From Chondrosia reniformis (taxonomy: Eukaryota; Porifera; Demospongiae; Chondrillida; Chondrillidae), in contig OX359202.1 of NCBI GenBank assembly GCA_947172415.1, positions 4,636,899 to 4,700,898 on the forward strand: a stretch of DNA of 64,000 bases. Reading direction: 5' to 3'. Positions within the stretch are counted from its first letter, which is position 1, and every line of letters starts with the position of its first letter. A program made the translations under genes and the position numbers. Below the pieces are notes generated by a model. The model saw nothing but the letters and a program-made list of their open reading frames with translations. It ran no database searches and was not told where the DNA came from. Below are positions 44 through 63,070 of the stretch, one piece after another.

Positions 44-270
44 TTTAAGCTCAGAAAATACATATGTATACAATCTTCCATGAATGGCTGTGTTACTAAG
101 GGTATTGAAATCACTGTATCCTAAAACAAAAGCTTTTGAATTGTAATGTCCAAATTCTGTGACTGCAATAACAACAGTCCCCTGTTGTTTATCTTGATCT
201 TGACAAAGATGCTTGAGGTAAGAATTCACCAATTCCCTTACATATCCACTTAATTTTCGATAGATAGTTT
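44..270 (-). CDS. Gene 4 cytosolic exon at window edge
   Basis: A 227-nt exon, phase 1 in, phase 0 out (AAA|GTAAGA). It reads YRKLSGYVRELVNSYLKH, then GTVVIAVTEFGHYNSKAF and VLGYSDFN. Strand-helix alternation suggests a globular domain, unrecognised. It joins in phase after 550-780. Confidence 0.45.
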
Positions 271-3200
271 CTATACAAAATGTATAGTAGGTATGAACAC
301 AATAAATAGGTATATATACGTACGTATTTAACTTTTTATTCTATTAAGAGAAAGCTATTGATTTAATTTATAAAGATGCAAAGAAGAACATCCAGAAAGA
401 CATTCAGGGAGACTAATGAAGCGTGGTATTCCCAGAAACAGACTTTTATTGTAGAAAAGTTGTAAGAAAATAGTGCTTTAATTAGATTCTGTGTTAATAC
501 TGTACATACCTGTTAGATGTGCTATTGCAAAAATGCCATTATTATATACCTTTATGGCTATTTCTGTCTTGTTCTAATTCTTTTAAAGCAGACACTACAT
601 GACTTTTAATGGTGGTGTTGCTCCCGGTGTATGATTCTGACAGCCATTTTACTATCAATTTACTAAAAGCAACATTCTCTAATAATTTGGATACCTTCCT
701 TTCCAGTGGAAAAGGTAATGATAGGATTACTCTGGCATTCTCATCCACATGAGATTGCTCATTAGTGCTGAAGCATTTTCCTGAAAAAAAACCAGAAAAT
801 TGTAAAATTAACAGCTGACCTGTGTACACAAATATGTACATAGGTACTACACCAATCCCATGTATTGTAACATATATAAAGTATATAGTTTCAACTACTG
901 TACGATGCTTCTTCACGATTTTTTTATCCAAGCATTTTGGGGCCATAGTAGACTACATATTACGTATATATGTGTGTACATATGTATGTTGTACACTTTT
1001 AAGAGCTAACCAGAGGAAAATGACCTCCTTTGATGTAGTCTTGCGATTATATTCTTTGCAATAACAAATATAATCCATACATTAAACACAATAAATGTAA
1101 CCTCAAGAGAAATCTTCCGTGTTTCCAAGGTTACATCATTTATTGTCATATACAATTTATTGGATCTGCTATCCTCAATGCAGGAAAAGCGTAAAATTAC
1201 ATAACAACACCGTGGCTCATTAGCTGACTTATCAAGGCCATTACCAGGGACTACCAGCGAGGAGGCGAGCTCTCCGGAGAAAACAAGATACACGTAGTCA
1301 GTTTTGATTCTTTCAGTCCCCATCATAGTAACTTGAAAAGGTGAATTTATAAATGGCAAGTATACTTGAAGAAGGTTTCCTGTAAAGATGAACATTTTAA
1401 CACATGAAATAAAAATATGTACGTACGTACGTACCTTATAAACTGCTATATAGAGGGATAACACACCTTTATGTAATGTCGTAAGATACTGTTGTAAATC
1501 AGGCTCATACTCTTCAGCATACTTGGAAAGGAGCTGCTGAGCCCCTACGGAGGAGACATGTACATTGAAAATACAAGTTATTACACATGGAAGTATAGGA
1601 ATTAAGGCTCTTATGATAAGAAACTATATACGTACATGTACCTGGCTGAGGCTAACTGAAGGTCAATTATTTTGAAGATGAATTCTACATAATCTTGCAG
1701 TTGAAAACACTATTTTCCTCTGAGGATATTTAAATATAAATTTGCAATTTTTTGATGCTACATGAATTCCTTTGTTTAGGCCTTACAATGACCACTGTGG
1801 ATTGTGGATAATCAATCACTGGAAAAATATTACATCAAACCAGTCAAGGGATCAGAGTCTTCTTATCTTGCCTCATAATAAAATTGGCAACCAGTGATTG
1901 TCTGCCAGTCACTCAAGTTGGAAAAATATTCAAAGACAACTGTTTTGCCCTCCGTAGGGCTCACCAGTGTGGTATATACTTTAGTGTTGAGTTTAGATGA
2001 TGATTTGAAATGTATACGTATATACATTTTCCAGGGCTTATCCACAATACGTAGATATATATAGTCTTTGCATAAGCATTGCACAATCAACTCACTTGTA
2101 TATATATCAATGACAGTAATGTTATATAAGTGTTGTGTTTTTGTGACATAACTGCTTTAAAGGTTATACAGCACATGACAAGAGACTTATAATGGGCATC
2201 AAATATAGTACAAAGGCATACATAGTTGGATTCCCTTGGTAGAGCCATAAAGACAACCTCAGACCAATGAGGAAACTATTCAATCAATTCATGTGTTACT
2301 ATGTTTGAACCATATAAACAGGAAATAACTACAATTCTTTGAATAGTTCTTTCATTATCCATTAATGTATTCCTACTAATATGTACATACATACTGTATG
2401 TATTAGGACTATACTATACTATACTATACTATACTATACTATATATTATACTATATATTATATTATTATGCCCCTAATATATTATACTATATATTAGGGG
2501 CATGAGAAGACTGTTCAACTGGAATTTTAAACTTCCTAATCAAGTGACTTACTGGGCTAAGTTTATTAAACTTTATATATATTATGCCATCCAGAATACA
2601 AACACATATAGTACAATCTCTATTCAATGTCAGGAACCGTTAGTATATATAACCAGCAGTGGTAGCCAGAAATATTGAAGGTGCATGTCGCTAGATTTTA
2701 TAGATTTCCTAAATACAATATGGGAACAATGTATATATATATATGTATGTATATAAATGTGAACACAGCTGCTTGGAAAACTGCTAATGTTGACAGAAAA
2801 TGTTTGTGAAACATAGAAAACAAGATATTATTTGGTAGAATTTTTTCACTGGTAGGCAGAGAGCATTGAAACGTATTCTTAAGCCTAATATTGATTAGTT
2901 AATCAGTTACTGTATATGTACGTATACTCCATAGGGCAATTAACCTTTGCTCCACCTTGGCCTCCGATATATTTTAGCTAAAACTGTTTTATACCCAGGT
3001 CTAGGTGAAGGATATTAAAATAGAAAAGAAATCGCATCATGACTAAGTATATAAATTTCAGAAAATTTATACAGTGAAATGACAAAATGCCTTTCAGCGC
3101 TTCGGGTTCAATCAAATATCTACAGCTGCTAGTGGTAAATATCTATCCTCTTAGCCATATATCTATAGAGAATGACGATACTATACCATGCTTCTGATCT

Positions 3201-5794
3201 AAGTTACACAATCATGCAGTAGCTAGCATGCTCCTGTAAAACTGAGAGGATCAATACACAAAATGTTTTAAAGTTTTTAATTAGAAAATTTTAAGTCTGT
3301 TATTATATGTATTGTACAGGCAATTAACATTTAACTAATCTCACCTTTCAAAAGAGAGACAAATGGTGAAATTCCAGGGGATGCACCTACATAAATAAGG
3401 GAACCGAGCACAGTCACAGCATCTTCAACAGTTTCCACGTATATACGTACATATACAGTATGTTAATATATTATTACATGCACTGTATAAAAATAGTTCC
3501 TACGTACGCATTAATAATACACAAAGTATAGTTTTAAAGTTGCTAGTTCATGGTCATAATTATATCTTATATACGCTTGAAATGTAATATATTTGTGACT
3601 GTATACACAGCTTCGATCATATAATAGAGTTTGTTATAAACTTCAAATTCAAAAAGTAGATCCCCACTAATTATATATATAATATACATGTATGTATATA
3701 TATGGAAGTCATTAAAACTTTTATTAATACTATTTGTGATTACATACTTTGGGGAGGTCTAATGTATGGGAATATATATGGTCACAGTTTACATGCCATG
3801 TGACACACCTACATACATAAGACACACCTACGTGCATAAGACACGCCTACATACATGAATAAGACACGCCTACGTACGTGCATAAGACACACCTACGTAC
3901 GTGCATAAGACACACCTACATACACAGGCATGTACAACTGACCAAGATTTCGGAAAGTGTTCTTGGTAAGGCCATAGATGAAAAAAGTCTTGCCACAATC
4001 ATGCGTATGCTGAATACTTGCATAGCAATGTATTCTTGGACAATCGTTTGCATTCTTCAGTACTGGTAAGTTGAGGTAAACTGCATTACATCTCATTTTA
4101 GTACCCATTTCAAAGAAGTTAAACAGTGCTGAAGAGAAAGAAGTTGTAATAGTCTTTAAAAGGGACATTCAAACATGAGTATAGACATTAGTTTCTCACT
4201 TAATTTAACAATCTCCAAACCTTCAATGAATTTTAATTTCAGATATTCCATAACCTCACCTGCAGGAAGTATCATATTTTATATATAGACCAGTATATAC
4301 CAAAGTACACATGTATATGCTAATAAAGGAATAGGCCTCCGAAATGCTACAACAAGGACATAACCTGTAAATTATATAATGAAATGCAGTATAAAACAGA
4401 CTTTCTCTTACTTGTTTTGTTGAGAACAGAAATCAACAAAAAATGTAGCTCTTCAAAGTATTGGCCAATGATACATCGACTATTTAATTGACAAAATTCA
4501 AATGGTAATGCACAAATTCTTTGTATTCTGGATTCTTCATGATCAAGAATTTCTGAAAGATCCACTGCAAAATACAAGCCATCAAATTACCATTACCATT
4601 TACAGTTCATTTTACCTAAATACACATATATATGTACGTTATACATACTGATTTCATGTGTATATCTGCAGTATATGTATTCAGTGCATTCAAGGCAAGA
4701 GTGTATAGAGTAAAAATGTATGTTGTATGCATATTATATTGTATGAAATAATCTACTTTATAGTAATATAAAGGCCAGTGGGTCACTATATATGCCAGCA
4801 ATATTTTACATACTTCATTTACGTATATAGTAGCTTATTAATGCTCAATGCATATATACAACATCAAACGTTTAAATGTACAGCTGCAGTATATACATGT
4901 ACATTATACACAATCTTTAAATTTCCAATACGCACTGTCAAAACTGAATTGCGTATGTACCTATACGTATAGTACATGATATATACGTATGTATCTATAT
5001 ACATACATGCTGTATCTCTTGATTTAAGTCTATCCAAAACAGGTCTTTCACAACTATTTAAACAGTACACTGCTTTGAAATACCATGTATTATTATAATA
5101 CCCAATATTTACTTACCAGTTGCACTGATCATGATGAAGATATCAGCCAGGAAAAGAAATACAGCAAAAAAGAATTTAGTAATACGACTATCACTGGTTT
5201 CTTGAGTAAAGGCCATTGTACCATAGTTGTACATATCACTAGCTTGAAACAAAGCAGACTCTGCAGATGAGAATTTTAAGTGTTCATTGAAAAATAAGTA
5301 AAATATAACTATATAAATATGCTACAATCAAAATGTGAGAATAATATATAATTTCCCTTAATTAAGCACCTATAGCTGTGCATAGTCCATGGGCCATTGA
5401 AAAATATATGCACACCTTATACTTACCTCTGTTAGTTTGATCTTTTATGAAATTAACTGTATCAGCGTCTTGGCCATACAAAAAATCTATTAAGGAATCT
5501 TATAATTAAAACATAAGTTTGTATTCTAACTATATTTGCACTGCATAACATATACATACATTTCATACAGTTAGTATGAATCACCTTTCCTCTTACCATT
5601 GGTGCACTCTGCATTTCTATTCTGTTCATTATCCAATCTAAATATATTTAATCCAGCTATGTGTGACTCTTCAATGCTATACATATAGCAATTGCTATCA
5701 TGAACTTCCAGTTTCCAATCAAAATATTCATCATTGCAAAAAGTGTTGGCTTTCAATCTACTCCGATGACAAAAGTCCTCATTTTCAATGTATA
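44..5794 (-). CDS. Gene 4: partial membrane protein, paralogue of Gene 3
   Basis: Phase-1 exons found: 5597-5794, 5427-5468, 5117-5260, 4412-4564, 3943-4128, 3345-3386, 1467-1544, 1011-1379, 550-780 and 44-270 (the last leaves at GTAAGA in phase 0 and continues beyond the left edge). The signal-peptide exon was not found. Exons 5117-5260, 3943-4128 and 3345-3386 match Gene 3 exons 42506-42673, 41366-41518 and 41036-41074 in order, with the shared LTKNTFRNLG-ASPG junction. A second membrane segment and a death-domain-like piece follow. It probably lies downstream of Gene 1 as Gene 3 lies downstream of Gene 2. Confidence 0.55.
550..1544 (-). CDS. Gene 4 second membrane segment and death-like exon
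   Basis: Exon 1467-1544 is helical (QQLLSKYAEEYEPDLQQYL). Exon 1011-1379 is a strand-rich part with Cys (RCCYVILRFSCIED) ending in VTFIVFNVWIIFVIAKNII, a membrane helix followed by basic residues, so the following part is cytosolic. Exon 550-780 carries IVKWLSESYTGSNTTIKSHV and SALKELEQD, which resemble helices 5-6 of a death domain; the first half of that fold is not clear. Confidence 0.52.
1545..3344. other. Gene 4 intron with simple repeats
   Basis: No coding exon was recognised. It contains a fragment at about 1790-1940 related to the 28.6-kb inverted-repeat element, and an ACTAT run near 2405-2445 followed by a small palindrome around ATGCCCCTAATATA at 2468-2503. Confidence 0.5.
3345..4564 (-). 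CDS. Gene 4 middle exons
   Basis: Exon 4412-4564 (VDLSEILDHEESRIQRIC to HFLLISVLNKT), exon 3943-4128 (CPRIHCYASIQHTHDCG, ending YGLTKNTFRNLG; donor GTCAGT is weak) and exon 3345-3386 (ASPGISPFVSLLKG). All are phase 1. The last two correspond to Gene 3 exons 41366-41518 and 41036-41074. Confidence 0.55.
3801..3925. repeat. Minisatellite of 19-23 bp units
   Basis: About six head-to-tail units beginning GACACACCTAC or GACACGCCTAC and ending ATAA (some with an extra TACG). It lies directly beside the exon at 3943-4128. Confidence 0.7.
5117..5468 (-). CDS. Gene 4 first membrane segment exons
   Basis: Exon 5427-5468 (DADTVNFIKDQTNRG) and exon 5117-5260, which ends ITKFFFAVFLFLADIFIMIS, a clear hydrophobic helix. 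The exon corresponds in position and layout to Gene 3 42506-42673. Donors are GTAAGT in both exons. Confidence 0.58.
5597..5794 (-). CDS. Gene 4 Cys-containing ectodomain-like exon
   Basis: A 198-nt phase-1 exon between TTGTAG and GTAAGA: ENEDFCHRSRLKANTFCND, FDWKLEVHDSNCYMYS and NRNAECTNG. Four Cys and several aromatic residues suggest a folded extracellular part. The family is not recognised. Confidence 0.55.
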
Positions 5795-10970: not shown

Positions 10971-13900
10971 CTGTAGGTAAAGATGAAAACATTAGTCATC
11001 AAAAAATAAGAAAATATATATCTGCAAATTAGTACACCTGCTAAATACATAACCAGAGGTCGAAATAAGTTTAGGTGAATAGTCAAATGTCCTAGCACTT
11101 GTGACTTCGATCGGTCATCTATAATGGTTGTGAGGTAAAATATTCTAGCACTCGTGATTATGTTCAGTCATTTATAATTTTGACATCAAAAAAGTATCCA
11201 TTCCGTTTGTTAATACAAAGTCGGAACGGCATATTGTTTCGTCTTATCTTTGCCTTCAATTTGTCCAAAAGTGTTTCGAGGTGTTTCAGAGGTGGGATTA
11301 GTAAATAGGGAATTGTTTTTCAAAGACGAACTATCATTCGTAATCGACCTTGCACCATTTTCGTAGAAACAAAACTCAAATTTCAGCACATGTGTAACAT
11401 TTCAAACTATTACATAAGCATTAAATATAAAGAGGCAGTGTGTTAATCTGCATGATCTTCAACTGACAGGAAATGGAGCAATACTAGTGGAACTGCTATA
11501 GAAAAGTGGATTGAATAGTGTTACACTCCTATACCATTACCAATGCATCCTTGACAGCTAGTTCCAGATGATGAGCTATGCATCACGTCCAGAACACCCA
11601 GCACAAACACTTTTCCATCAAACCTTGCAGCCTTGATGCTGCTATGTTTGCAGATGTACCATTCCAACCAGATTTAGGAACTTTTAAGTGGAGACTTCCC
11701 CTGGCCCTGGAGTCCACTCTTCAACACTTCACAAATGCCTTCTGCTGTAACATGGTGTGATTAAACAAGGGTGAAATATTCCCTTTGCATGTGAATCTTC
11801 TTGTAGCTTCCATCTTGATAGTATCATACGACAAGGATAAGCTCATTGTCGATGTTTGCCGTCTGTTGACCCATTTAGGAGCAAAGAAAGGAACTTGGCA
11901 TTGGCAAGCTTTTCTTTAGCTCCTGTCTTCTGGACTCAGCAATGTAGTAAATCATCTCTTTTCCTGCACTTTCGTTGATATACGTATATGAAGTGCCAAG
12001 GCTAACTCCATGGTGAGTTTCCAGTTCACAAATTTTCTGGTATTTGCTAAAAGGGAGATTCTCAGTTGCCATAAAATGGAAAATATCAAATTTGCGTTAC
12101 AGGTTTCTCTCTCTCATCATTGGATGGATAGCTTGCTGAAAGCGTGAGCTAGACCAGATGACTTAGAGCGCTGTTTCCTCAGGAGCAACATTGAGTGCAG
12201 ATGCTGAGCACTTTGGGCATGGTCAGGAACATTGCTTACTCTCAGAGTCAGTTCTGACAATCCACTTGTCACTAAGTTTTTACTCCCTTGGAGTTGTTTG
12301 CAAATTTGCTACACCCTTTGCACATGAGCTGGGTCACCATCCACTTCCTGCCATCTCTCTTGCTTGAACAATCCAGCCAGGAGAAAGTCTGATAATAACG
12401 GTCGAGTTTGTGCTGCAATTTTTGGATGGTTGAGTCCTCAACATGCTGTTTCTTGGTGTCACTTGCTTCACCTTGCATAGCAGATTTTCTCTTTAGGCTG
12501 AACAATAGTCTTAGGCAAACAACTACTCCAGAATCACTTAATCCTAACCAACTGTGCTCGCAAACGATGGAAACACTACCAGATGCAAAAAGTGGCACCT
12601 CCAAAACGATTTTACTTTGTCATTCCTACTGACCATGTGGAAAATCTATATATATGTATATATATAAATAGTGTAACCTGGATTTCGCCACAATTCGTTC
12701 AAGCACTTTTTTGGCGGAATATTGAGTTTGGCAAATTAACCAAAAATAAACAATATTTATAGCCAGCTAAATAAAACGATATTTGCTCCTGCGGTGCCAT
12801 CGAATTCCTCCTCTTACAATGGCCAATTCATAATGTGTCATCGAAGGACTTGAAAGCATGCTAGCTAATGGCTTACTAATTTTGTCTTCAAAGGCGGGGG
12901 TGCTCATATGTATAATAAAATGTATGAACATTGAACGATGATCGAACGTTATTTTAACCACTTTATGGTATGTACATATTTACAATTGCAACTCTAGACT
13001 GAATATATAATAAATTTAACAATGCACATGGGCTCACCACAACGTCTCTGGGAGGTAACCTGTCTTGTCTGAACAAGGCAAATTCCATCTCTTCCATGAT
13101 GTCCAGTCTGGGGAACGGAGATGGGTCACCAACTCGAGCACTCACTTTGGCCGAATCACAGGTCTTGTTGTACTCAATAGAAATATCTCTCCCAATTAAC
13201 TGCAGACCTCCCCAATGGACGTGCTGTGAAAACTGCTGGATACAGCGAATGGCCATTGAGCTCTTCTGGATGGCCTTGGAGGTTGGGTAGCCATCATGAG
13301 CAAGAAGACGGTAGAAGAAGCTCATGAAGATGCTGGCACTCTTGTCTGGTACTCTGAGAAGAGACACAAGCACTGATTGGGCACCTGCAGCTAGAAATGC
13401 CCTAGCAACAGAGTTAACGCCTTCATTGGCCACCTGTCCCCTGCCACTATCACAGGCAGATAGAACCACCAAAGAGGCATTCAACTGAAGCTTTTGGATC
13501 TCTTCAATGAAGAGAAGTGCTTCTTTAGCATCTACTGCTTGCTTTAGTGATAGTGTGGGTATGCTGGCACCAAATGCCAGGTATCCTTGGGTCCCTGATC
13601 CATGAGTGGCAATGTGGACAATGTTGGCAAGTTGCAGTCTGTATACAATGGTCTGTTTGGTAGCCTGTTCCTTCAGTACAGGTGGAGCCTCCAGAATGTG
13701 AGCAATCTGAACTGCTTCAGCTTCAGCATGAGGAAGACGACCCAGTGATATCTCCCTGTTGTTGTGGGTGACCTTAGGGATGGTAGGGTTACCAACTACA
13801 AGGAAGCGATCTTCTGAAGGAAGGGTGATTGTCACAGGAGGCTGACTGTTGATGATTCCCATGGTGAAGATGGAGGGAAACACTCGAATGGTGTACCTAT

Positions 13901-26446: not shown

Positions 26447-26491
<45 letters not shown>

Positions 26492-47885: not shown

Positions 47886-47923
<38 letters not shown>

Positions 47924-48232
47924 TATCCTCTCCCGGCCTATATAAATGCAATGTGTACATACATACATACATACATACATACATACTTGAAATAAATTTT
48001 CCATAGGAAATACATGTTCCAACTTTGATCAGACTTTATTTAAATTTTAATAATAAAACAATAGCGTAACAGTGCTGCATGAGATGTGCATTACAATACA
48101 ACTGTCAAAGGCTATAAGCTATAAAGACTTATGACTATCAGGGCTTATGATATATAGGTACATGTAAGTGTATAAGTAGGTATTAAATTCATTACCTAAT
48201 CACATGCAGCAATATCTAAATATATTTCTTAG
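46525..48232. other. Region between Gene 2 and Gene 3
   Basis: 1.7 kb holding Gene 3's upstream sequence. It is AT-rich with an (ATA)n run at 47887-47923 and a CATA run near 47958-47987. No exon was recognised; promoter elements cannot be assigned by eye. Confidence 0.5.
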
Positions 48233-49579: not shown

Positions 49580-52500
49580 CTGTAGGTAAAGATGAAAACA
49601 TTAGTCTTCACACTATCAATTACGTACATATTTACAACTGTTACAGTAATTGCAACTCTATACTTGCTGAATTATAATAATACTAGAGAAAAATAAAAAT
49701 TTTCTACAAAAATGAAGATGTAGGGATGGCACAAAAAGCACATAAATAAGAAAGGGATGTTACACAGTGAAGCATTAGCTATATATGCATGAATCATACA
49801 ACACCCTTGCTTGTAGGATTCATGCATAGCTAATGCTTCACTGTGTAACATCCCTTTCTTATTTATGTGCTTTTTGTGCCATCCCTACATCTTCACTATT
49901 TTCGTAGAAAATTTTTATTTTTCTCTAGTTTCTATACTTTTTATGAAGCATAAGCTTCAAATTCAATTGTATTTAAACCCATTTTGGTTTTGCAATCTTC
50001 GACTGATTATGACGTCATTAAAATGGCGAATTTATTGAGGCTCTGGGGCTATGAAAACCATCATACTCAATAATAGCGTTATCGCTCTGGCTTCTACAAA
50101 AGGATACAGCTCGGAAAATTTGCAACAGTTTCGTTTAACAATTAGTCCAAAAGCTTATATAGATGTTTAGTTATGGCTGACGAAGAAGAAGAATAGGAAG
50201 AAGAGTATGAAGAAGACGAAAATGGGAATTTTTTAAGTTTATTATTTCGCCAGCGGGACATATTCGCTTGCCTTTAAGGTCTATTTAGAGTATGTATATT
50301 GTATATTTAGCTATACATAGCCTTGTTTTGTCGATTTTCGGCCTATTTCAGGATTTTGCTCCTATACCGATGTATGGGGAAACGAAAAAAACGCGTCATT
50401 CCTACATAGGGAGTACTACCGTATTCCTACATAGGGAGTACTACCATACTCCCTGATATTTAACAAAGCACATAACTCATAATATTTAACATTACAATAA
50501 ATGCATTGCCAAATAGACTCACCACAACATCCCTGGGAGGCAATCTGTCTTGTCTGAACAAGGCAAATTCCATCTCTTCCATGATGTCCAGTCTGGGGAA
50601 CGGAGTTGGGTCACCAACTCGAGCGCTCACTTTGGCCGTATCACAGGTCTTGTTGTATTCAATAGAAATATCTCTCCCAATTAACTGCAGACCACCCCAA
50701 TGGACATGCTGTGAAAATTGTTGAATACAGCGAATGGCCATTGAGCTCTTCTGGATGGCCTTGGAGGTCGGGTAGCCATCATGAGCAAGAAGACGGTAGA
50801 AGAAGCTCATGAAGATGCTGGCACTCTTGTCTGGTACTCTGAGAAGAGACACAAGCACTGATTGGGCACCTGCAGCTAGGAATGCCCTAGCAACAGAGTT
50901 GACACCTTCATTGGCCACCTGTCCCCTGCCACTATCACAGGCGGACAGAACCACCAAAGAGGCATTCAATTGAAGCTTTTGGATCTCTTCAATGAAGAGA
51001 AGTGCTTCTTTAGCATCTACTGCTTGTTTTAATGATAGTGTGGGTATGCTGGCACCAAATGCCAGGTATCCTTGGGTCCCTGATCCATGAGTGGCAATGT
51101 GGACAATGTTGGCAAGTTGCAGTCTGTATACAATGGTCTGTTTGGTAGCCTGTTCCTTCAGTACAGGTGGAGCCTCCAGAATGTGAGCAATTTGAACTGC
51201 TTCAGCTTCAGCATGAGGAAGACGACCCAGTGATATCTCCCTGTTGTTGTGGGTGACCTTAGGGATGGTAGGGTTACCAACTACAAGGAAGCGATCTTCT
51301 GAAGGAAGGGTGATTGTCACGGGAGGCTGACTGTTGATGATTCCCATGGTGAAGATGGACGGAAACACTCGAATGGTGTACCTATCTCCTAGGAACACTC
51401 CAGTGCTCTTATCCTGTAGTATAGCCCATGGCAACAGTTGCGCTGTCTGATCAGGAATAATGACTAGATCTCTGACAGATGACATCTTGCTTTCAATGAC
51501 TTCAATAAATTTAAAAGCGAGACTGTCAAAAAGCACATTCAATGGAGTGTTCATCTCTTCCAGTGTAATGGGCTCAAAGAGGTCAAACTCCTTTTGATTC
51601 AGGTAGTCAATCAGGCTCTTGGACACATACTGGTCAAATTTGACTTTCTCTGTGGATGTAGGATCAGTGAAAAGATCCGTTGGGAGCGGTATCTTCAAAA
51701 AGTGATAATTTTGAGGAGGAATGAGTGTCTTTGGCTCAGTATGAGAAGCAGTGTAGGATGATGGTGAGGATGAGGAACTAGTCACATTTGTGACTAGAGA
51801 AGGCTTTTTTAATGATTCAGTGGCATGACCAGGGAAGATAATGTGCACCAACATACAGGAAGTAGTGAAACTCAGCATCACCACCGGTGACTTCTCTTGC
51901 TGTGCAAACTCCCAAATGGAGGAGAGCTCAAGTGGTCGATTGACATGCATCAAACTGACTGTACCAGACATCATTCTCTTCTGCCACAGGATCTCTCCAA
52001 GGTTTCTAGCTCTGTTAGCCTCTGCCACTTTCAGTGACTCCTGTTTCTCCCCAAGTAACACTAGAATGCGCTGGAGGTTGTAGAAAGCCCTGGAATTGGC
52101 TTCAAACAAGGAAAGTGCCATGGAATCTGTGTCTTCTTCACTACCAGTACCTCCCTTAACTTTGTCAAAGGAAGACTCAATAAGTGTCATGACTTCTTCA
52201 AGATCATTTTTGGCTTTGAGAAGATAGTACTTACGATAGCTCAAGTAATGTTGATCAGAGGCAAACGTTGGTTCTTGTGGACTATCACTGCTTTGTTGAG
52301 TGGAAGTGGGAACAATAGCTGAAGTCACTTCATGGTCACTGTTGCTATGTTTGTCCTCTATGTCCTTCATGTTGTCAAGACCATCTCTGGTCCTATATTT
52401 TCCTTCACTGACAACCAAACGACTATGGCGAGTCTGTGAGGATTCGGATTCTTGTACAGGTAAATGCAATTTTTGAGATTCTGATGGCTCAGCTGCAACC

Positions 52501-55500
52501 ACATCAGAGGGAACTTCATCCCACTCTCCAACATTCTCGTTCACCTTGTGGGCCAGTGTCATGTACAGCTGTGCACGATTCTGGAGAGCATTAATCTTGG
52601 CTTGCTCATCACAATTGAGGGACAGTGTCTCATTGTAGCAGTTCAGTGCATCCAAGTTCTCCTCCAGTAAGGTCTTGATGTTGCCAAGGTTACCCAATGC
52701 TCTAGCCTGGGCAGGTTCGTCATTGCAGAACACTGCATGACCGTACGCTATCTCAAAGTAGTCATTTGCCTCTTTGTATCTCTTCACTGTCTGGAGTGCA
52801 TTTCCCAGGTTGGATGCAGCCCTGCCAATGCCAAGCAGTGATCTCTCATATTTCTTTGCAAATTTAAAAGCTTCTTTTAGATATGGGATAGCTTCATGTA
52901 CTCTGTTCAGACCAAGAAGGGCATTACCCAAGTTGCCTTTAGCCCATCCCAGAGCAAGTGGATCATTTAGTGTCTCTTGTAGTCTGAGAGCTTCCTTGTA
53001 TTCTTCCAAGGAGTTGTTACAGTCAGACATTCCCTGGTAAAGGTTTCCCAGAGCGTGGCGAGTTGAAATTTCATCTTTTGTGGCCTGTGTGATTTTATCC
53101 TTTCTTTTAGTATCACTGATTGGGAGAGCTTCAGCTTCTTTTCTCAGTTGAACGGAATGTTCTACAGCCATTTTAAAGATCTCTTTTGCCTTTCTAAAGT
53201 TGCTTGTAAGTTTGTAACAGTTGGCCAGTTTGAGAATGACTGCACTCTTTGAGATGATAATGACTCCAAACTTGTGAGCAACATTCTTCACATCATAAGT
53301 AGTGTGTGCTTGTTTGTACATTTCAATGGCTTTAGGGTACTCCTTCAGAGCTAGTCTCATCTCACCTCTGTAGATGGAGGCCACTGCTACGTCTCCTGAT
53401 GCATTTTGTTGCATAGCGATATCTTCCAACCTATCAAATTGTGGATATGCTTCTTTATAAGCTTTTTGTCTGTAGAAGCTGATGGCAATTCCAAATATTC
53501 TAGCTCTTTGGATTTCTGCATCAAGTAGAAGCTGTCGATCTAGTATGGATAAGACTTCTCTGCATCTTGGGTAATCCCCAGAAAGGTAAATTGCTTTTGC
53601 ATGAATTACCACAGATGTGGGGTTCTTAGGATCAAGAGGTTGCTTTATAAGGAAGTCCTCATCATTCATCTTAGAGATAGGTACAAAAAAGCCTGGTTGA
53701 GACTGGTTGGACTCACCAACAGGGGCATCGCGAGGTACATCATGTGCAGTATCTTGTTTACGGACAGGTCTATGATCCTCTGAAAGTTCCATATTAGTAA
53801 TAGATTTAATATTAGTTTTTTGGAATATATCTGATGTTTGAGAAATTCTGCCATGATCTACATCTTCCAATACCTTTTGTTCTTCCTTGTTTAGTTTTTC
53901 ACTTAAGTTCTCATGAACTATATCTCTTGTTTTTGATTTTCTTTTAGCTATAAAACCTAAAAACAAAAGCAAATTAACAAATATTAGAACAAATATTAAA
54001 CTACATTTGTACGTACGTATGTATATACGTACCTAACTAATCTAGCAAGATGAAAATTGCTATAAGAATACATCTTAAAATCAACAGAACAAAAATACTA
54101 TACGTATAAGGTGTCAAGGTGTTAGCTATTACTAGAGAGCAAAATAACATCAAATTCATTATACACATTTGTAACCACTATGCATGGACTTCATTCACAA
54201 AATTAACACATCGAAGACAAAGCACCAGACCAGGAAAGCTTCGTTATAACCAAATTTTTCAAAGATTTATCACAAAAATTTTGTTATAAACTGAAGGTTT
54301 TATATTGTTAAAATTACAACCAAAATTTTGTTAAATCAGTGTTCGTTATAAACGTACGTACGTACATATAGCATTGTGTGATATAGACACAGTAAAACTT
54401 CAATAATCCTTTAATGACTGAATAGTCATTATATAACTAATGAACTAAAATTATTTCCTATTTTTTCAGGCCTTAACTACAATCCATTTAAAGAAAGGTC
54501 CACCAAATAACATATTTCAAGTATTGTCATTAATTTCATATGAATATCACATGACCCTCTACCCACCCATGCATTTGGATATTGACCGTCATTAATCCAT
54601 TGCCAAAGGTTAGTAAATGGAGTTACTTTTGGTTTTATTAGCCTATTTTCTCCAAAAAGGAAGTACATTACAAAAACTTGGCCACCCTATTCAATGTATT
54701 ATCATTTAACAACTCATAAATCAACAAAGTGATTTCAGTTACATTCGAATATTTGCAGTTATTTAAGTACACTGTTTTAAATATCAAAAAATGTTTTGAT
54801 GTTCTACCATCAGCAAAGTGGTTAACCAGTGTATACGTACTAAGAAATGAAGAAAATTGTATTGGTAAACATACTTTGTTGTCCAAATGTAGCTTCAACT
54901 GTTTTAGAATTATTTCCATGATCACATTCAACAACTTGAGAAGTCAATATATTTGTGAAGGAAAAATCAATAAAGGAGCCGTCATCTTCATCTATTTCAT
55001 ACGTTGGGATCAGAATGGTGATGACTTTATGAAGCCCAACTTTCTTTAATATGTCTGAAAGTTCATTCAACACTGAAGGAGTACTTGATTCAGATTTATA
55101 AGCAATCCAAACACCCAGACAGTGGAGCACCTCTTTTTCAGATCTACCATTTTCTGGGAGGTCTATTAGTGGATTGTTAGGACATTCAAAATAAAAAGAT
55201 TTTCTGATATCTGTCCATATGTTATCCCATTGTGAGAGGAGAGGCTTTGCAATTTGTGCAATGTCTTGCAAAGGGGGAAGTTGCTCAACCAAACCTGCAA
55301 AACAAAAGCTAGTAATAAGAGCACTGTGCCGTACGGATCAAAAAAGGTAATGGTCGGTGAAACAGAAATTTTATAAACATTAGGTCATAGGACAATTTCT
55401 ACTAATTGATGAATAGCAAAGGATAATGTGACGCTTTCTGCTAAACAACAAGGGCCACAGACTAACCCTTAAGAAGCTGTCATTACACATATAGCCAATA

Positions 55501-58500
55501 TGTTCAGAGAAAAGTGTTTTTAAGAGTACGTATAATCGACAAACTTGTGAACTAAATCTGACAAGAATACAATGTATCATCATTTACTGGTAGGAGCCAA
55601 TCGCTCTCTCTACTTTATTGAATAATTGTTCTTTGAAAACATCATGGGCATCCTTAGGGAACAAGGAAAGATGACAAATGCCTAAGAAACTCTTAAACTA
55701 ACTAGAACACTAACTAGAACATAATCCATTATTGACAGAATGAAATAGACAACGCCTGGCACCCCCAAATTCAAACTACTTGCTGGTTATTAGATGCCTG
55801 GTCGTCACATAATGCCATCAATTTCAAGGCTATATCTTGTAGAAAACCTTTTTGTGCAGGCTTTACATTGCATAGAGTTAGTAAAGGTGGTTTCTAAATC
55901 CTTTTGATTGGTTCAATTTTCGACACAAAGGAAGAGAAAGTTAATTTAAGCTTAGAAAACAAAATCCAGCCGAGCGTCCACCATTTCATTGACAGATATA
56001 AATATACATACACACACACACATATATATATATATGAGGTTACAAACTGGAAGCCAGATTACTATTAGCTTTTTTATTCATACTGTATAAGTAAATTTAC
56101 CACTGTACTGTGCAAGCTAGTGTAGGTACGTACCTTGTAAAATGACATCAGAGATAAATGCAGTGTCAGCATTACTCAGAAACAAAGCATGGACGACTTG
56201 TGATTTCTTGACTGGTTTAGAGCCTCTCTTACTAACAACTATCTGCAATTCATCCAAAACACCTAGATGATCTTCATTTGTAATGAAAAGCTGTAAGTTT
56301 CTCATTAACTGTTTTATGTCAAATTGATCAGCCAAGTCTTTAACATCATTGAAGGCCCCTCTTGGATTTTCACAAACTACAGTTATGTACAAATACAATT
56401 AATGATATAGTTAGCTAGGCAATGTATAAACATTTAAGAAATTCATCGGTTACACAAATAATAAAACCTCATTAACATACAGAACATCAGGACTATGTAC
56501 TTGTTAAATAAGACCATACGTATGTATGTATGTATAAATTACATATTCTAACATTTCATAAACAAATACATAATCCACACTACTTACACTTAGCATTTAA
56601 GTAATTTGCAATGTCTGAAGTTATTCCTGAAGACTTTAGAGCAACAGTGAAATCTTGAACCTGTACTTTATCTTTAAGTTTAATATGAATGTACATCTTT
56701 TCAAGCTGTGCTCTGTCTAAAATGTACTTTACAGTATCTTTAACAGAAGAAACAAGGATCCATTCAAGTCTTAGACCTTTAATAAAATTTATCACTTCAA
56801 ATTTTACTCCACATTGTCTTGATTGTTTGACAACATAACTCAAAGGATCTAGCTGTGCATTCCTTTGTGCTGCATTAACATATTCACTTGGATGAACTAC
56901 AATGTAAACATTAATGGTATAATATAAAATACTGTACATAGATTTACAACTTCTCTTTATATTATCTTTGTACCTGTATTGGGAGGGGGAATGTTTGTCA
57001 TGTGACTGATACAGTGAGGTTGATTTCCATACATATCACCACTCTTGTGAGCAAATGCTAAAACCGCAGTCATTGGTGGAGTAGATTCTGAAGCTGGTGA
57101 TATTTCATCATCTTGACGACCAAGTGGATTAATTTTCCTCTGTAGGGCCATTGTGAATGAATGCAGCTTGGATCCCTTTCCAACACTCAAGTCAACATTT
57201 GAGCTCTGAACTGGACCTAAAACTTTCTTTGTGTCACTGACATCTTCCTGCCCAATTGGGGCAATTCTTTCACCAATATTTATCCTTGATTTACTATATA
57301 TAGCATCTTCAAGCTCTGAATGCATAGGCTGAATGGAGCTGCTAGGCCTTGTAGCACCATCTTGAGACAGTTTTTGTTTCTTCTTTTCTGGCCTCTCCAC
57401 ACATCTGCCATTAGTAAGGTAGACTTGGCTTGATTCTGTAAAGAAGACAGCATGTACACATTAACATAGAACTGCATGATTCACACAGCCCCTTATTCAC
57501 CCACCAAAATCTACCATGTCTTCAACTACTGAACCTCCATCTTGTAGCACTATTTCTTTCAAATTCAATGTTCTAGTCTTCAATTCTTGAACTGACTCTA
57601 GACTGTAACTTTGTTGTAACTTGTTATATTCTTCACCTGAAAATGTCAAACTAATTAATAAAGGCATGTTCAACTACCTTAAATATACAGCTACCCATAT
57701 CGTTACGTTAAAATAACAAAAGACAGTTTTCTTGTAAACTCTAGTACTGTATATTTGGATGACAGAACCTTAACTAATTATACATAGAAGATGAATCTTC
57801 CTGTAGAGCTGAAATGCTGTATATGGAATCAGTCGACTATATTCCCTACGCAACTGACCATAGTCAGATGGCAATGCCCTGTGGGAGACTTGTAAAGGTG
57901 CACCGTCACTGGTAGTATCAACTGATAGCTCCTTATTTGCTAAAAAGAGACATGAGAATTAGATTTATGTGCTGTAGAATGTGACCGAATGTACTCACAG
58001 GACGGAAAAATGAGGCCATCAAGCATATCACTCCTGCAAGAACAAATTTCTACTTCACCCTTTACGGTTAACAGCAACTGTTTTGACCAAGTGGCTGGTC
58101 CTACAAAAGCTGACTTTTCCTTGTTAAAGGGAACACTTTCATGCTCTTCACTAATAATGTTCTCTTCAAGGGCAGGCAAGCAACTTTCGGTGCCTGCTGA
58201 CAAGAGACAAACATCTTCTCTCTCATAGAGAGGAACTGATTCCATTACAAAAGAGCCATGCACTATGTTAATGGTACATGGCGGATGACCAGCCATTTGA
58301 GCCTAAATAAGTTGAATGGAGGAACAGTTCAAGATGGGCTCTCCTAAATTACAGTACAGCCAGAACATCTGATGGTATTTAAATTTGACGATGTTGCAGC
58401 TCAAGGTTGTGATTTCATCCAGTCAGCAGTCAACAATGGCCGTGTACACTGCCACTCGGTCTGGTTACCAGCCGTAATCTCTTATACAAACGTAAGTATT

Positions 58501-61500: not shown

Positions 61501-63070
61501 ACAAAAGCAATAATAACTGTAGAGACCTTTTGGCTTTTCTCTCTGAATAACTGTTGCTTCAGAAATGAATCATAATCCAATTCTACAAGGTAAAATTGAA
61601 ATTTCTTATGATACAAACATTTGTTTACATTAAATAGTTTGACTTACTTGGATCACCACTGTCACTTTCCTGAGAAAACTCATTAGAATTGCTACTAGTA
61701 TTGACATGAATGTATCCTAAAGATTCACCATCTAGTATAGGACTTGACAATTGATAGAGAGCTTCATCAAACACCAATTGACTGCATTCACCATCGGGAT
61801 CAGACCTCTTTCCTAGACAAGTCTCGGATATTTTATCAATAAATGAATTACTACAGTCACCATCAAAATCACATTGTTTAGACTCCTTCTCTTGTTCAAC
61901 AGAAGTGGAAACAGGCACATTGCAGTCAAACGGATTAAAAATGCTTGAAATAGCTACAGTAAGAAAATGATACATAATACTTACATACTTCATACGTACA
62001 TAGGTCCTATTTCAGTACATATGTAACTACACATTCCAACTTCTAACCAGTGCTACTACTCTGGCCTTACTTTTATCATCTAGATCTTCCTTATCAATAG
62101 GGAAAACCTTCCCATTGCAGAATAACTTTAAATTGGCATCAAATCTTTCATTTTCCCATTCAATAGGCTGAATGGAGCTACTAGGCCTTGTAGCTACGTC
62201 TTGAGACAGTTTTTGCTCCTTATCAGAGTTTTCAGGCTGAATGGAGCTGCTAGGCCTTGTAGCACCGTCTTGAGACAGGTTTTGCTCCTTATCAGAGTTT
62301 TCAGGCTGAATGGAGCTGCTATGCCTTGTAGCACCGTCTTGAGACAGGTTTTGCTCCTTATCAGAGTTTTCAGGCTGAATGGAGCTGCTATGCCTTGTAG
62401 CACCGTCTTGAGACAGGTTTTGCTCCTTATCAGAGTTTTCAGGCTGAATGGAGCTGCTAGGCCTTGTAGCACCGTCTTGAGACAGGTTTTGCTCCTTATC
62501 AGAGTTTTCAGGCTGACTGGAGCTGCTATGCCTTGTAGCACCGTCTTGAGACAGGTTTTGCTCCTTATCAGAGTTTTCAGGCTGAATGGAGCTGCTATGC
62601 CTTGTAGCACCGTCTTGAGACAGTTTTTGCTCCTTATCAGAGTTTTCAGGCTGAATGGAGCTACTAGGCCTTGTAGCTACATCTTGAGACAGTTTTTGCT
62701 CCTTATCAGAGTTTTCAGGCTGAATGGAGCTGCTAGGCCTTGTAGCACCGTCTTGAGACAGTTTTTGCTCCTTATCAAAGTTTTCAGGCTGAATGGAGCT
62801 GCTATGCCTTGTAGCACCGTCTTGAGAAAGTTTTTGCTCCTTATCAGAGTTTTCAGGCTGAATGGAGCTGCTAGGCCTTGTAGCACCGTCCTGAGACAGT
62901 TTTTGCTCCTTATCAGAGTTTTCAGGTTTCAATTTTGATTTATTTCCAGCTATATATATGAGATTTAATTCTGCATTTAAGACAAAACAGGATTCTCTGT
63001 AGGTTCATTGAATGATAATAGTATAATTTACCCATTTCCTCCATTTTTTCACAACAATTTTCATTAAAAC
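48233..63070 (-). CDS. Gene 2: cassette-rich death domain-TPR-CHAT-pseudo-NB-ARC protein
   Basis: Twenty-one exons join in frame (about 3165 residues): 63032-63070, 62071-62949, 61648-61953, 61527-61582, 60790-61093, 60569-60730, 60292-60423, 60019-60222, 59599-59904, 59478-59533, 58856-59045, 58735-58790, 57999-58302, 57784-57939, 57505-57636, 56974-57435, 56588-56896, 56134-56376, 54875-55294, 50523-53956, 48233-49579. The last six match Gene 1 in order and phase. The first fifteen form a repeated cassette region, and the sixteenth (56974-57435) starts with one more cassette piece. The true start is unknown: exon 63032-63070 opens at an acceptor and holds an in-frame ATG at 63044. Whether one transcript carries all cassettes cannot be told from DNA; the phases allow it. 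Confidence 0.7.
49682..49929. mobile_element. Near-perfect 248-bp palindrome in Gene 2 last intron
   Basis: Both arms (from ACTAGAGAAAAATAAAAA) pair over about 100 bp, including GCACAAAAAGCACATAAAT and its complement. The matching Gene 1 intron lacks it. Confidence 0.85.
50523..53956 (-). CDS. Gene 2 TPR-CHAT exon (cysteine peptidase core)
   Basis: An exon of 1144 codons with the same layout as Gene 1: about seven TPRs, a linker, then CHAT with HIATHGSG (His codon 51087-51089) and SACDSGRG (Cys codon 50937-50939). The first 85 or so residues differ from Gene 1. From RDAPVGESNQSQ onward the two exons are nearly identical apart from scattered changes. Acceptor TTTTAG, donor GTGAGT. It is preceded by the death domain and followed by the NB-ARC-like exon. 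Both catalytic residues are present, so it should be active. Confidence 0.92.
54875..55294 (-). CDS. Gene 2 death-domain exon
   Basis: A 140-residue phase-1 exon. DIAQIAKPLLSQWDNIW gives helices 1-2, and VLHCLGVWIAYKSESSTP followed by LSDILKKVGLHKVI gives helices 5-6 of a death domain. It aligns along its length with Gene 1 16581-17000 but is far more diverged than the TPR-CHAT part. The acidic tail EIDEDDGSFIDFSF follows. This divergence next to a conserved catalytic exon suggests different partners. Confidence 0.72.
55748..56000. repeat. Dispersed repeat family, copy 2
   Basis: The same order of blocks as 24897-25215 (CTGGCACCCCC-like start, GGTGGTTTCTAAATCCTT, CCAGCCGAGCGTC), in a Gene 2 intron. 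Confidence 0.65.
56134..56896 (-). CDS. Gene 2 helical module (two exons)
   Basis: Exons 56588-56896 (opens VHPSEYVN) and 56134-56376 (ends ISDVILQG) are the counterparts of 18196-18828. The first ends AAGT|GTAAGT and joins T|TT in phase 1. The predicted helical pattern is conserved, including KKSQVVHALFLSNAD. Here the intron between the exons is 211 nt and cannot be read through as in Gene 1. The family is not recognised. Confidence 0.65.
56974..57435 (-). CDS. Gene 2 A-type cassette exon fused to conserved linker
   Basis: It begins like the A-type cassette exons (ESSQVYLTNG, then KLSQDGATRPSSSIQ) and continues with GERIAPIGQEDVSD, the linker and the conserved FAHKSGDMYG to IPPPNTG end. It therefore carries the A-type repeat and the Gene 1-like linker in one exon. 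Acceptor TTACAG, donor GTACAA, phase 1 at both ends. Confidence 0.7.
57505..57939 (-). CDS. Gene 2 cassette exons E and F (proximal copy)
   Basis: Two phase-1 exons. 57784-57939 reads NKELSVDTTSDGAPLQ to RKIHLL, and 57505-57636 reads EEYNKLQQSYSLESVQ to a GTGGGT donor. They match 60569-60730 and 60292-60423. The first exon lacks the TATAG|GTACG donor of its twin, so I used CTAT|GTATAA, which keeps phase. The F exon is predicted helical (ELKTRTLNLKEIV). Confidence 0.55.
57999..58302 (-). CDS. Gene 2 D-type cassette exon, identical to 60790-61093
   Basis: A 304-nt exon starting phase 0 (AQMAGHPPCTINIVHG) and ending phase 1 at GTGAGT. The deduced protein is identical over 118 residues of open frame to the copy at 60790-61093, indicating very recent duplication or conversion. 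It holds several Cys (CLLSAG, EICSCRSD) and acidic runs (EENIISEEHE). No known domain is recognised. Confidence 0.65.
58310..58590. repeat. Intronic repeat, first of three
   Basis: Related copies lie at about 59050-59335 and 61100-61380. All are in the intron between C- and D-type (or hybrid) exons and were carried along by the cassette duplications. They contain ATCAAATTAAAATTCCTGCC and end near TACGGTATTAG. Confidence 0.65.
58735..58790 (-). CDS. Gene 2 C-type 56-nt cassette exon, copy 3
   Basis: A 56-nt exon (phase 1 in, phase 0 out): LDYDTFLKQQLFREKSQK then a GTCTCT donor. Sister copies lie at 59478-59533 and 61527-61582. The donor is weak, but the phase it produces is exactly that needed by the following D-type exon in all three places. 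Read-through would instead give a hydrophobic stretch (STVVIAFVLLYVYV). Confidence 0.5.
58856..59045 (-). CDS. Gene 2 hybrid D/B cassette exon
   Basis: This exon starts like a D-type exon (DQKIGHP against AQMAGHP, with 17 of 21 matching bases and a matching upstream intron) and after seven codons turns into the B-type sequence from GKRSDPDGECSQ to its normal GTAAGT end. It is a junction between two unrelated exon types that kept an open frame, phase 0 in and phase 1 out. Confidence 0.6.
59478..59904 (-). CDS. Gene 2 cassette exons B and C, copy 2
   Basis: Exon 59599-59904 is B-type: SIFNPFDCNVPVSTSVEQ, an acidic Cys-bearing part (CDFDGDCSNS), and ESDSGDPS before GTAAGT. Exon 59478-59533 is C-type. 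The B exon matches 61648-61953 closely. The protein is acidic and rich in Ser, probably disordered. No family is recognised. Confidence 0.6.
60019..60222 (-). CDS. Gene 2 A-type cassette exon, single repeat unit
   Basis: A 204-nt phase-1 exon: ESNQVYLTNGKCVERPEKKK, one KLSQDGATRPSSSIQ unit, then IEWENGRFDAN and CNGRVFPIDKEDLDD before GTAAGG. It is the ungrown form of the repeat-bearing exon 62071-62949, whose tail is almost the same. Confidence 0.65.
60292..60730 (-). CDS. Gene 2 cassette exons E and F (distal copy)
   Basis: Exon 60569-60730 (NKQLSVDSISDGAPLQ to HLLCI, donor GTACGT) and exon 60292-60423 (EEYNKLQQSYSLESVQ, donor GTGGGT) are both phase 1 to phase 1. They are close copies of 57784-57939 and 57505-57636. 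Neither has a recognisable domain; F is predicted helical. Confidence 0.58.
60790..61093 (-). CDS. Gene 2 D-type cassette exon (distal copy)
   Basis: It opens with AQMAGHPPCTINIVHG after TTTAG and ends at GTGAGT. It is identical in protein sequence to 57999-58302, 2.79 kb away. It is joined by the C exon on the 5' side and the E exon on the 3' side. Confidence 0.65.
61527..61953 (-). CDS. Gene 2 cassette exons B and C, copy 1
   Basis: Exon 61648-61953 (B-type, SSIFNPFDCNVPVSTSVEQ) and exon 61527-61582 (C-type, LDYDSFLKQQLFREKSQK). They show a few substitutions from copy 2, such as LGYIHVN for LEYCHVN. Phases are 1-1 and 1-0. The unit continues into the D exon at 60790-61093. Confidence 0.6.
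62071..62949 (-). CDS. Gene 2 A-type cassette exon with 11 tandem 23-residue repeats
   Basis: An exon of 879 nt made mainly of eleven head-to-tail 69-bp units. Each encodes a variant of PENSDKEQ plus KLSQDGATRPSSSIQ; variants swap K/N, G/V and P/H. It ends with IEWENERFDAN and CNGKVFPIDKEDLDD, as in 60019-60222, then GTAAGG. The repeat is hydrophilic and likely unstructured. Array length is probably polymorphic. Confidence 0.7.
62167..62929 (-). repeat. 69-bp in-frame tandem array (11 units)
   Basis: Eleven 69-bp units inside the Gene 2 A-type exon. Because 69 is a multiple of three, the minus-strand coding frame and at least one plus-strand frame stay open through the array. Confidence 0.9.
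63032..63070 (-). CDS. Gene 2 first detected coding exon
   Basis: A 39-nt phase-1 exon with acceptor AATTAG and donor GTAAAT. It reads FNENCCEKMEEM and joins G|CT to the repeat exon. The ATG at 63042-63044 is in frame and could be the start. If not, further 5' exons lie to the right. I saw no clear exon in 63071-64000. Confidence 0.45.

What the first reader, a model, noticed from the sequence alone, without database searches (positions are those of the whole stretch)
44..63070. Alternating pairs of death-domain CHAT genes and death-domain membrane genes
Along the minus strand the order is Gene 2 (CHAT), Gene 3 (membrane, two death domains), Gene 1 (CHAT), Gene 4 (membrane, death-like). Genes 1 and 2 are paralogues by exon order and sequence; Genes 3 and 4 share the ITKxxFRxLG-ASPG exon junction and a membrane exon. 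This looks like a two-gene module duplicated in tandem. Death domains on both members suggest a receptor plus protease system. I know of no described animal system with exactly this pairing, but I could not search.
Basis: partly seen in the sequence, partly recalled or inferred. Interest (0 to 1): 0.85.

Follow-up and report, generated by a model that had tools for sequence, protein, structure and literature searches.

The report
Sponge protease and receptor-like gene array
In a kidney-sponge chromosome, three copies of a caspase-like protease gene alternate with two related genes that look like cell-surface proteins, a layout that could be a home-grown cell-death or self-recognition pathway but has not been shown to work as one.

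Summary
The window fits chromosome 14 of the sponge Chondrosia reniformis. The array holds three CHAT genes, not two; the third lies just below the window, followed within about 1 kb by eIF5. Each encodes helical N-terminal modules, TPRs, a CHAT protease with catalytic residues kept, and an NB-ARC-like region without P-loop. Pfam finds no death domain in them; a low-confidence model suggests a diverged one. Both gaps hold paralogous receptor-like genes: signal-peptide-like first exon, then ITKxxFRxLG|ASPG exons, same order and phase. Gene 3's two death domains have clear relatives on chromosome 3, but their splicing to its first exons is unproven; Gene 4's death domain is unsupported. At the two other loci with related CHAT genes, the nearest neighbours are different genes. 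New: synonymous divergence shows that the TPR-CHAT-NBD core was homogenised among the three copies while heads and tails diverged. A new variant of the TPR-CHAT kind; receptor-protease function is inference.

The parts
56974..57435 (-).
   Evidence: Paralogous with copies b and c and, in part, C8; 85 bp of it 98.8% identical to copy b; boundaries from my own gene finder
56583..56909 (-). CHAT gene a: helical module 1 (VHPSEYVN), no family assigned; boundaries approximate
   Evidence: Aligned with copies b, c, C8, C11
56120..56374 (-). CHAT gene a: helical module 2, no family assigned; boundaries approximate
   Evidence: Aligned with copies b, c, C8, C11
54875..55294 (-). CHAT gene a: death-fold-like exon
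   Evidence: 35-36% identical to copy b; the exons of copies b and C8 have no Pfam hit
50523..53956 (-). CHAT gene a: TPR-CHAT exon, catalytic His (ATHG) and Cys (SACDSG) present
   Evidence: CHAT 160.5 bits; motifs
48236..49579 (-). CHAT gene a: last exon, NB-ARC-like region without P-loop, then variable C-terminus
   Evidence: Alignment; low-confidence model of copy b
42506..42572 (-). Gene 3: signal-peptide-like first exon (MKDFLSLILLITSFILLPVHIF), phase-1 donor
41366..41518 (-). Gene 3: exon ending ITKESFRGLG, phase-1 donor GTATG; 5' end uncertain
   Evidence: a whole-genome search found only itself
41036..41074 (-). Gene 3: small ASPG exon, phase 1-1
35549..35815 (-). Gene 3 region: death domain 1
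   Evidence: Pfam Death E 0.0037, 17.8 bits, below cut-off; Smith-Waterman 82 against a C3 domain, shuffles at most 53
33904..34241 (-). Gene 3 region: death domain 2
   Evidence: Relatives on C3 at E down to 6.6e-10 that pass the Pfam Death cut-off; Smith-Waterman 130 and 138
22595..23095 (-).
18196..18828 (-). CHAT gene b: helical modules 1 and 2 (one open frame here)
16581..17000 (-). CHAT gene b: death-fold-like exon
13038..16495 (-). CHAT gene b: TPR-CHAT exon, catalytic His and Cys present
   Evidence: Pfam CHAT 157.7 bits, TPR_12 83.3 bits
9633..10970 (-). CHAT gene b: last exon, NB-ARC-like region without P-loop (GMSPHDPSE), then variable C-terminus
5117..5216 (-). Gene 4: signal-peptide-like first exon, phase-1 donor
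4412..4564 (-). Gene 4: possible extracellular exon
   Evidence: Gene finder; weak match on C1 (E 0.035)
3943..4128 (-). Gene 4: exon ending LTKNTFRNLG; its phase-1 donor GTCAGT is weak, and the gene finder prefers a donor at 3916
3345..3386 (-). Gene 4: small ASPG exon, phase 1-1
1467..1544 (-). Gene 4: exon AQQLLSKYAEEYEPDLQQYLTTLHK, phase 1-1
   Evidence: Gene finder
1011..1379 (-). Gene 4: exon with a hydrophobic segment (ISLEVTFIVFNVWIIFVIA) and basic flank, probably transmembrane
   Evidence: Hydropathy 2.31; donors at 1011 (score 1.1) and 1245 (1.0, which would skip the segment) compete
542..780 (-).
   Evidence: Acceptor score 4.6; rank 8 of 4927 with a sponge death-domain profile

Best explanation
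A TPR-CHAT protease family of this sponge has been triplicated in tandem on chromosome 14, with a related receptor-like gene in each of the two gaps. Shown: the gene order, intact CHAT catalytic residues, homology of the two gap genes at their ITK/ASPG end with a signal-peptide-like exon upstream in both, two death domains in the Gene 3 region, and homogenisation of the TPR-CHAT-NBD core among the three copies while N-terminal modules and C-termini diverged. Inferred: the N-terminal death-fold module recruits the CHAT protein to clustered receptors (Gene 3 through its death domains), crowding activates the protease as for initiator caspases, and the diverged heads let one common protease core serve different inputs. 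The degenerate NB-ARC-like tail would be a scaffold or autoinhibitory part, not an ATP switch. The output, cell death or an alarm or self/non-self response, is a guess from the family.
For: CHAT and TPR. Catalytic His and Cys in 5 of 5 family members, His lost in the TTC28-like protein on C5. Gap genes: a scan for signal-peptide-like first exons gave 5 hits on both strands of 210 kb, 3 in one minisatellite and one in each gap (thresholds were set after the two peptides had been seen). ITK|ASPG junction phase 1 in both; no shuffle of 5000 reaches its score. Gene 4 core scores 25.3 on the minus strand, 0 on the plus, and 0 of 60 simulated sequences reach it. Gene 3 death domains. CHAT death fold: 25 of 28 listed VIA rows, hhalign E 6e-4, and copy b against another local death domain, 0 of 1000 shuffles. 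CED-4 among the best structure matches of the last exon. Mosaic: dS 0.00-0.33 in the core against about 1 or more, up to saturation, in most flanking comparisons of a with b and c; DNA tracts of 96.5% and 97.9%.
Against: Nearest neighbours at the C8 and C11 CHAT loci are other genes, and no gap-gene motif was found in 20 kb at each. No Pfam death domain in the CHAT genes; model pLDDT 54.7, no significant Foldseek hit; most shuffle tests of CHAT exons against accepted death domains are not significant; copy c ranks only 17th of 4927 with the death-domain profile, E 22. Gene 4's death domain is at background. Gene 4's coding score lies below at least 12 of 44 control tiles, which include real genes, and the Gene 3 death-domain stretch scores only 3.0 (simulations at most 1.9). 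No transmembrane exon was settled for Gene 3. No expression, binding or protease data.
Confidence: 0.42

Rival explanations
1. The CHAT genes are intracellular sensors or proteases acting on their own through TPRs and the NB-ARC-like tail; the gap genes are bystanders duplicated along with them by unequal crossing-over.
For: Nearest neighbours differ at C8 and C11. Death domains are abundant. The third CHAT gene is followed by eIF5. Corals expand TPR-CHAT genes by tandem duplication (PMC12314368, passages).
Against: Gap genes stand in both gaps, same strand and order, and the Gene 3 region carries death domains.
Confidence: 0.38
2. Genes 3 and 4 are decayed remnants or are partly mis-modelled from AT-rich noncoding sequence.
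For: Weak coding scores, weak splice sites at several exons, plus-strand open frames of transposon look in the Gene 3 gap (by eye), no other copy of Gene 3's ITK/ASPG exons found in the genome.
Against: Shared phase-1 junction and signal-peptide-like exons; open death-domain exons with clear relatives; 0 of 60 simulations reach the scores.
Confidence: 0.15
3. The CHAT genes are TTC28-like structural scaffolds; the death-fold reading of the N-terminus is wrong.
For: No Pfam hit; low model confidence.
Against: A separate TTC28-like gene exists on C5 and lacks the catalytic His; this family's CHAT is nearer cyanobacterial TPR-CHAT (35.6%, 145 bits) than that TTC28-like protein (29%, 67 bits); 25 of 28 listed VIA-align rows are death folds.
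Confidence: 0.05

Closest known systems
Animal TPR-CHAT proteins (TTC28 and the coral TPR-CHAT expansions)
   Same: TPRs followed by CHAT; tandem duplication in corals (PMC12314368, PMC9145168, passages)
   Different: Here helical and death-fold-like modules precede the TPRs and an NB-ARC-like tail follows; His and Cys are kept, while the sponge's own TTC28-like protein lacks the His
Cyanobacterial TPR-CHAT proteins (e.g. Nostoc sp. UHCC 0302 WP_341531371.1)
   Same: CHAT domain 35.6% identical over 285 residues of the query
   Different: Annotated only as a CHAT domain-containing tetratricopeptide repeat protein of 876 aa; no death-fold head was looked for there
Amphimedon Death/TRADD-N multidomain families (Kaur et al. 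2021, PMC8195603)
   Same: Lineage-specific sponge expansions combining death-like domains with effectors including caspase (section 10 read)
   Different: No TRADD-N was identified here (not searched for with a dedicated profile); the effector is CHAT
Death receptors (TNFR1/FAS type) with initiator caspases
   Same: Would work alike: secreted or membrane protein with death domains plus a death-domain protease (recalled)
   Different: No Pfam family found in the Gene 4 model at E up to 0.1; protease is CHAT, not caspase; linkage and binding unproven
Separase
   Same: Caspase-like protease with a death-like domain proposed (PMC4626109, search listing only)
   Different: Not compared by sequence here
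APAF1/CED-4-type STAND proteins and NLRs
   Same: Last exon resembles the nucleotide-binding region in order of secondary structure (my reading); CED-4 among the best Foldseek hits
   Different: No P-loop, no Pfam NB-ARC hit, model pLDDT 44.1

Membership tests
TPR-CHAT protease | CHAT domain above Pfam cut-off | tested here: met
   157.7 bits against 24
TPR-CHAT protease | TPRs before CHAT | tested here: met
   TPR_12 83.3 bits, N-terminal to CHAT
TPR-CHAT protease | Catalytic His and Cys (positions recalled, motifs read from sequence) | tested here: met
   5 of 5 family members
TPR-CHAT protease | Proteolytic activity | not testable with these tools
   needs protein
Death domain in the CHAT genes | Pfam Death hit | tested here: not met
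   0 families for the exons of copies b and C8 at E up to 10; whole copy-b frame 0 families at E up to 1
Death domain in the CHAT genes | Death fold | tested here: inconclusive
Death domain in Gene 3 | Pfam Death above cut-off | tested here: not met
   17.8 and 13.0 bits against 22.6
Death domain in Gene 3 | Homology to accepted Death domains | tested here: met
   E 8.5e-10 to C3:6644799, itself over the Death cut-off (27.8 bits alone)
Death domain in Gene 4 | Profile match above background | tested here: not met
   rank 8 of 4927, E 6.6; Pfam 0 families
Death receptor | Signal peptide | tested here: met
   signal-peptide-like exon in both gap genes by hydropathy and donor, no dedicated predictor
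Death receptor | Transmembrane segment | tested here: inconclusive
   Gene 4 hydropathy 2.31, splice choice open; none settled for Gene 3
Death receptor | TNFR-type ectodomain | tested here: inconclusive
   Gene 4 model 0 Pfam families at E up to 0.1; Gene 3 ectodomain too incomplete to test
NB-ARC/STAND NTPase | Pfam NB-ARC hit | tested here: not met
   0 of 5 members
NB-ARC/STAND NTPase | Walker A (P-loop) | tested here: not met
   GMSPHDPSE or equivalent in 5 of 5; motif knowledge recalled
NB-ARC/STAND NTPase | Fold | tested here: inconclusive
   CED-4 E 8.5e-4, prob 0.80, from a pLDDT 44.1 model; three ORC chains rank higher
Duplicated CHAT-receptor module | Receptor-like gene as neighbour of the other CHAT genes of the family | tested here: not met
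   nearest neighbours at C8 and C11 are other genes; no motif in 20 kb at each; beyond those stretches not tested

The most novel reading that the evidence does not exclude
The locus is a self-contained extrinsic pathway: secreted/membrane receptors with death domains wired to CHAT proteases whose shared core is kept uniform by gene conversion while their adaptor heads diversify, an animal death or allorecognition system that uses CHAT in place of a caspase.
Probability: 0.12. Interest if true: 0.88.

Novelty: new variant of a known kind. Interest (0 to 1): 0.52.

Why it matters
CHAT proteases are best known from bacteria (recalled), and outside anthozoans the majority of metazoan species are reported to have only one or two TPR-CHAT genes (PMC12314368, passages). 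A sponge family with intact active site, death-fold-like heads and an NB-ARC-like tail, beside receptor-like genes and death domains, would give early animals a non-caspase effector for death-domain signalling. The mosaic of a homogenised protease core with diverged heads and tails suggests one output kept constant while inputs change, which can be tested directly.

Tried and rejected
Tried without result: PDB sequence search for the last exon (0 hits) and for the death-fold exon (2 chance-level hits); module 2 (5 chance-level hits); hhalign of modules 1 and 2 against the death-fold exon (E 0.7); Pfam for modules 1 and 2 and the last exon; PADLOC (three TPR models and BovA for the TPR-CHAT exon, none for the last exon of b, C11 and C8); bacterial genome scan (49 pattern stretches, none confirmed). 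Considered and rejected: that Genes 3 and 4 are 3' parts of the CHAT genes (the last open frames of copies b and c end alike, and eIF5 follows copy c); that the homogenised core came from spliced cDNA (the intron between the two homogenised exons is only about 120 bases in copy c by my gene finder, and matches copy b at both ends); that the VPDLESEYK exons proposed upstream of Gene 3's signal-peptide-like exon are coding (they look like a minisatellite and a partial copy of it; as DNA this stretch was found nowhere else in the genome). The shared membrane exon as sequence homology (36 of 2000 shuffles). Two C1 matches to a Gene 4 exon (E 0.035 and 0.60); reading 1.2 kb there showed a similar short frame but no gene model.

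Limits: gene models come from a small gene finder I wrote, trained on ten CHAT-family frames, some of them the same gene twice, with generic splice weights. The ITK patterns and the signal-peptide thresholds were set after seeing the two hits. No sponge other than this one is in the collections searched. dS values are Nei-Gojobori on exon pieces. Flanks of the C8 and C11 genes were read for about 4.6 to 8.8 kb only.


Full report
Where it is. The window is C14:4636899-4700898 of a genome of 117,379,552 bases in 15 contigs. The six contig lengths I saw (C1, C3, C5, C8, C11, C14: 10.41, 9.42, 8.80, 8.13, 7.63 and 6.75 Mb) agree with Table 3 of the Chondrosia reniformis assembly odChoReni1 (PMC12181767, passages), as do total size and count (14 chromosomes and the mitochondrion); I therefore take it as chromosome 14 of that sponge (inference). 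I read 210 kb around the window and pieces of the other CHAT loci.

CHAT genes. A search of the whole genome found six CHAT exons: three in tandem on C14 and one each on C11, C8 and C5. Within about 1 kb after copy c, same strand, comes eIF5 (Pfam eIF-5_eIF-2B 98.6 bits). The minus-strand order is CHAT a, Gene 3, CHAT b, Gene 4, CHAT c, eIF5. The C5 gene is TTC28-like by its architecture (my reading), with many TPRs and the catalytic His lost. C8 and C11 are single members of the same family as C14. C8 has matches to each N-terminal exon (module 1 weakly, E 0.028). C11 has modules 1 and 2, but I saw no death-fold exon in the roughly 265 bases between their frames and the TPR-CHAT frame. Neither shows a gap-gene-like neighbour in the 4.6 to 8.8 kb read beside it: on C8 a protein kinase (Pfam Pkinase 114.4 bits) and a weak CARD-like frame; on C11 a transporter (Mem_trans 40.1 bits) and a kelch gene. 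In C14 the signal-peptide-like exons lie 5.7 and 4.4 kb below the CHAT stops, so a partner farther away at C8 or C11 is not excluded.

The gap genes. ITKxxFRxLG and GASPG occur in six frames of 210 kb only in the two gaps, each in that order on the minus strand. At the DNA level both junctions split a glycine codon in phase 1 (Gene 4's donor is weak, and my gene finder prefers one 27 bases on). Alignment of the two exons scores 66, and 0 of 5000 shuffles reach it (maximum 49). A scan for ATG plus hydrophobic core plus phase-1 donor found 5 sites on both strands of 210 kb: 3 in a minisatellite, and one in each gap upstream of ITK; none in the C8, C11 and C5 loci. I set the thresholds after seeing the two peptides, so the scan shows rarity, not an independent discovery. 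The 'membrane exon' is therefore best read as a signal-peptide-like exon; the peptides themselves are not clearly alike. Gene 4's core scores 25.3 in my gene finder on the minus strand, 0 on the plus, and 0 of 60 simulated sequences reach it. Gene 3's first part scores 17.6, in a model that includes minisatellite exons I reject, and its death-domain part 3.0. Among 44 control tiles the median was 13.6 and at least 12 scored above Gene 4. Gene 4 ends with a probable transmembrane exon and a tail whose likeness to death domains is at background (rank 8 of 4927; in a five-sequence scan it scored best, 6.9 bits). The Gene 3 region ends with two death-domain exons. Their best relatives are pairs of death domains in a five-copy array at C3:6.63-6.72 Mb, some over the Pfam cut-off. 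I could not show that these exons are spliced to the signal-peptide-like, ITK and ASPG exons 5 kb upstream, nor settle a transmembrane exon for Gene 3.

Mosaic evolution. Among copies a, b and c, dS is 0.138-0.159 over the TPR-CHAT exon; in 60-codon steps it is 0.00-0.33 once past about the first 120 alignment columns, where it is 0.85 to saturation. It stays at 0.11 or less over the first 180 columns of the last exon. Beyond that, a against b and c is 1.36 to saturation; b against c is 1.15 to saturation over the next 120 columns and then 0.08-0.36. The death-fold exon gives a-b 2.17 and b-c 0.16; the N-terminal exon a-b 1.08, a-c 0.96, b-c 0.13; module 1 b-c 1.46; module 2 b-c 0.70. At the DNA level the tracts are b 13033-16244 with a 50518-53729 (96.5%) and b 10431-11001 with a 49040-49610 (97.9%); an 85-bp piece of the N-terminal exon is also 98.8% identical in a and b. 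Selection on the protein does not explain a tenfold change in dS. Gene conversion or recombination of a core of about 3.9 kb, TPRs through the NBD-like part, does (inference). dN/dS over the TPR-CHAT exon, 0.35-0.40, fits constrained coding genes.

How it may work. Shown: anatomy, order, catalytic residues, the mosaic. Inferred: death-domain recruitment of CHAT proteins to a clustered receptor and activation by proximity, as in extrinsic apoptosis (FAS/FADD/caspase-8; recalled), with heads that diverge and a core that does not. The main rival, bystander genes, is nearly as likely, because the pairing is not seen at C8 or C11.

Known context. Acropora genomes hold about 300 TPR-CHAT genes and most metazoans outside anthozoans one or two (PMC12314368, passages). 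Montipora shows a TTC28-like expansion (PMC9145168, passages). Amphimedon has 357 TRADD-N proteins, mostly with death-like domains and variable effectors (PMC8195603, section 10). Dysidea avara has 128 DEATH genes (PMC12909245, passages). In the held library, 'CHAT domain', 'death domain' and 'sponge' occur together in one paper, a fungal review (listing). The rows listed in further searches showed no description of this pairing; these lists are capped and most subscription papers are not held. The CHAT core is nearer to cyanobacterial TPR-CHAT proteins (35.6%, 145 bits; 209 plasmid records matched) than to the sponge's own TTC28-like protein (29%, 67 bits); origin by transfer is possible but was not tested with a tree.

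Verdict. It is a new architectural variant of TPR-CHAT proteins in an animal, with an untested but testable receptor-protease hypothesis.

Noticed in passing
window 57300-63004 (-): The 5' end of CHAT gene a holds tandem copies of an N-terminal block (e.g. 57943-58302 and 60734-61093, identical 120-aa peptides) and a 69-base minisatellite at about 62.1-62.9 kb open in frame (ENSDKEQKLSQDGATRPSSSIQP).
   Followed up: partly
C3:6631762-6718600: Five-copy array of paired death-domain exons, nearest relatives of Gene 3's domains; only 2.5 kb of it could be read.
   Followed up: partly
window -63194 to -62805 (-), L009:3704-4093: Another death-domain exon about 50 kb below the third CHAT gene.
   Followed up: partly
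C8:4286011-4286346 (+): Open frame with a sub-threshold CARD match (Pfam E 0.0094, 16.4 bits, cut-off 23.9; FeoC ranks above it at E 0.0044) beside the C8 CHAT gene, opposite strand.
   Followed up: partly
window 20165-20443 (+): Transposase remnant (Pfam DDE_3, 19.9 bits, below cut-off) between two exons of CHAT gene b.
   Followed up: partly
window 31843-32442 (+): Reverse-transcriptase-like frame by eye (DKGPGVRPIGISEVCRRIIGK); Pfam gave no hit at E up to 0.1.
   Followed up: partly
C2, nine sites at 0.60-1.83 and 8.30 Mb: Nine of the 150 listed death-domain matches lie on C2 and read through one in-frame TAG each, suggesting intron ends or decayed copies of one family.
   Followed up: no
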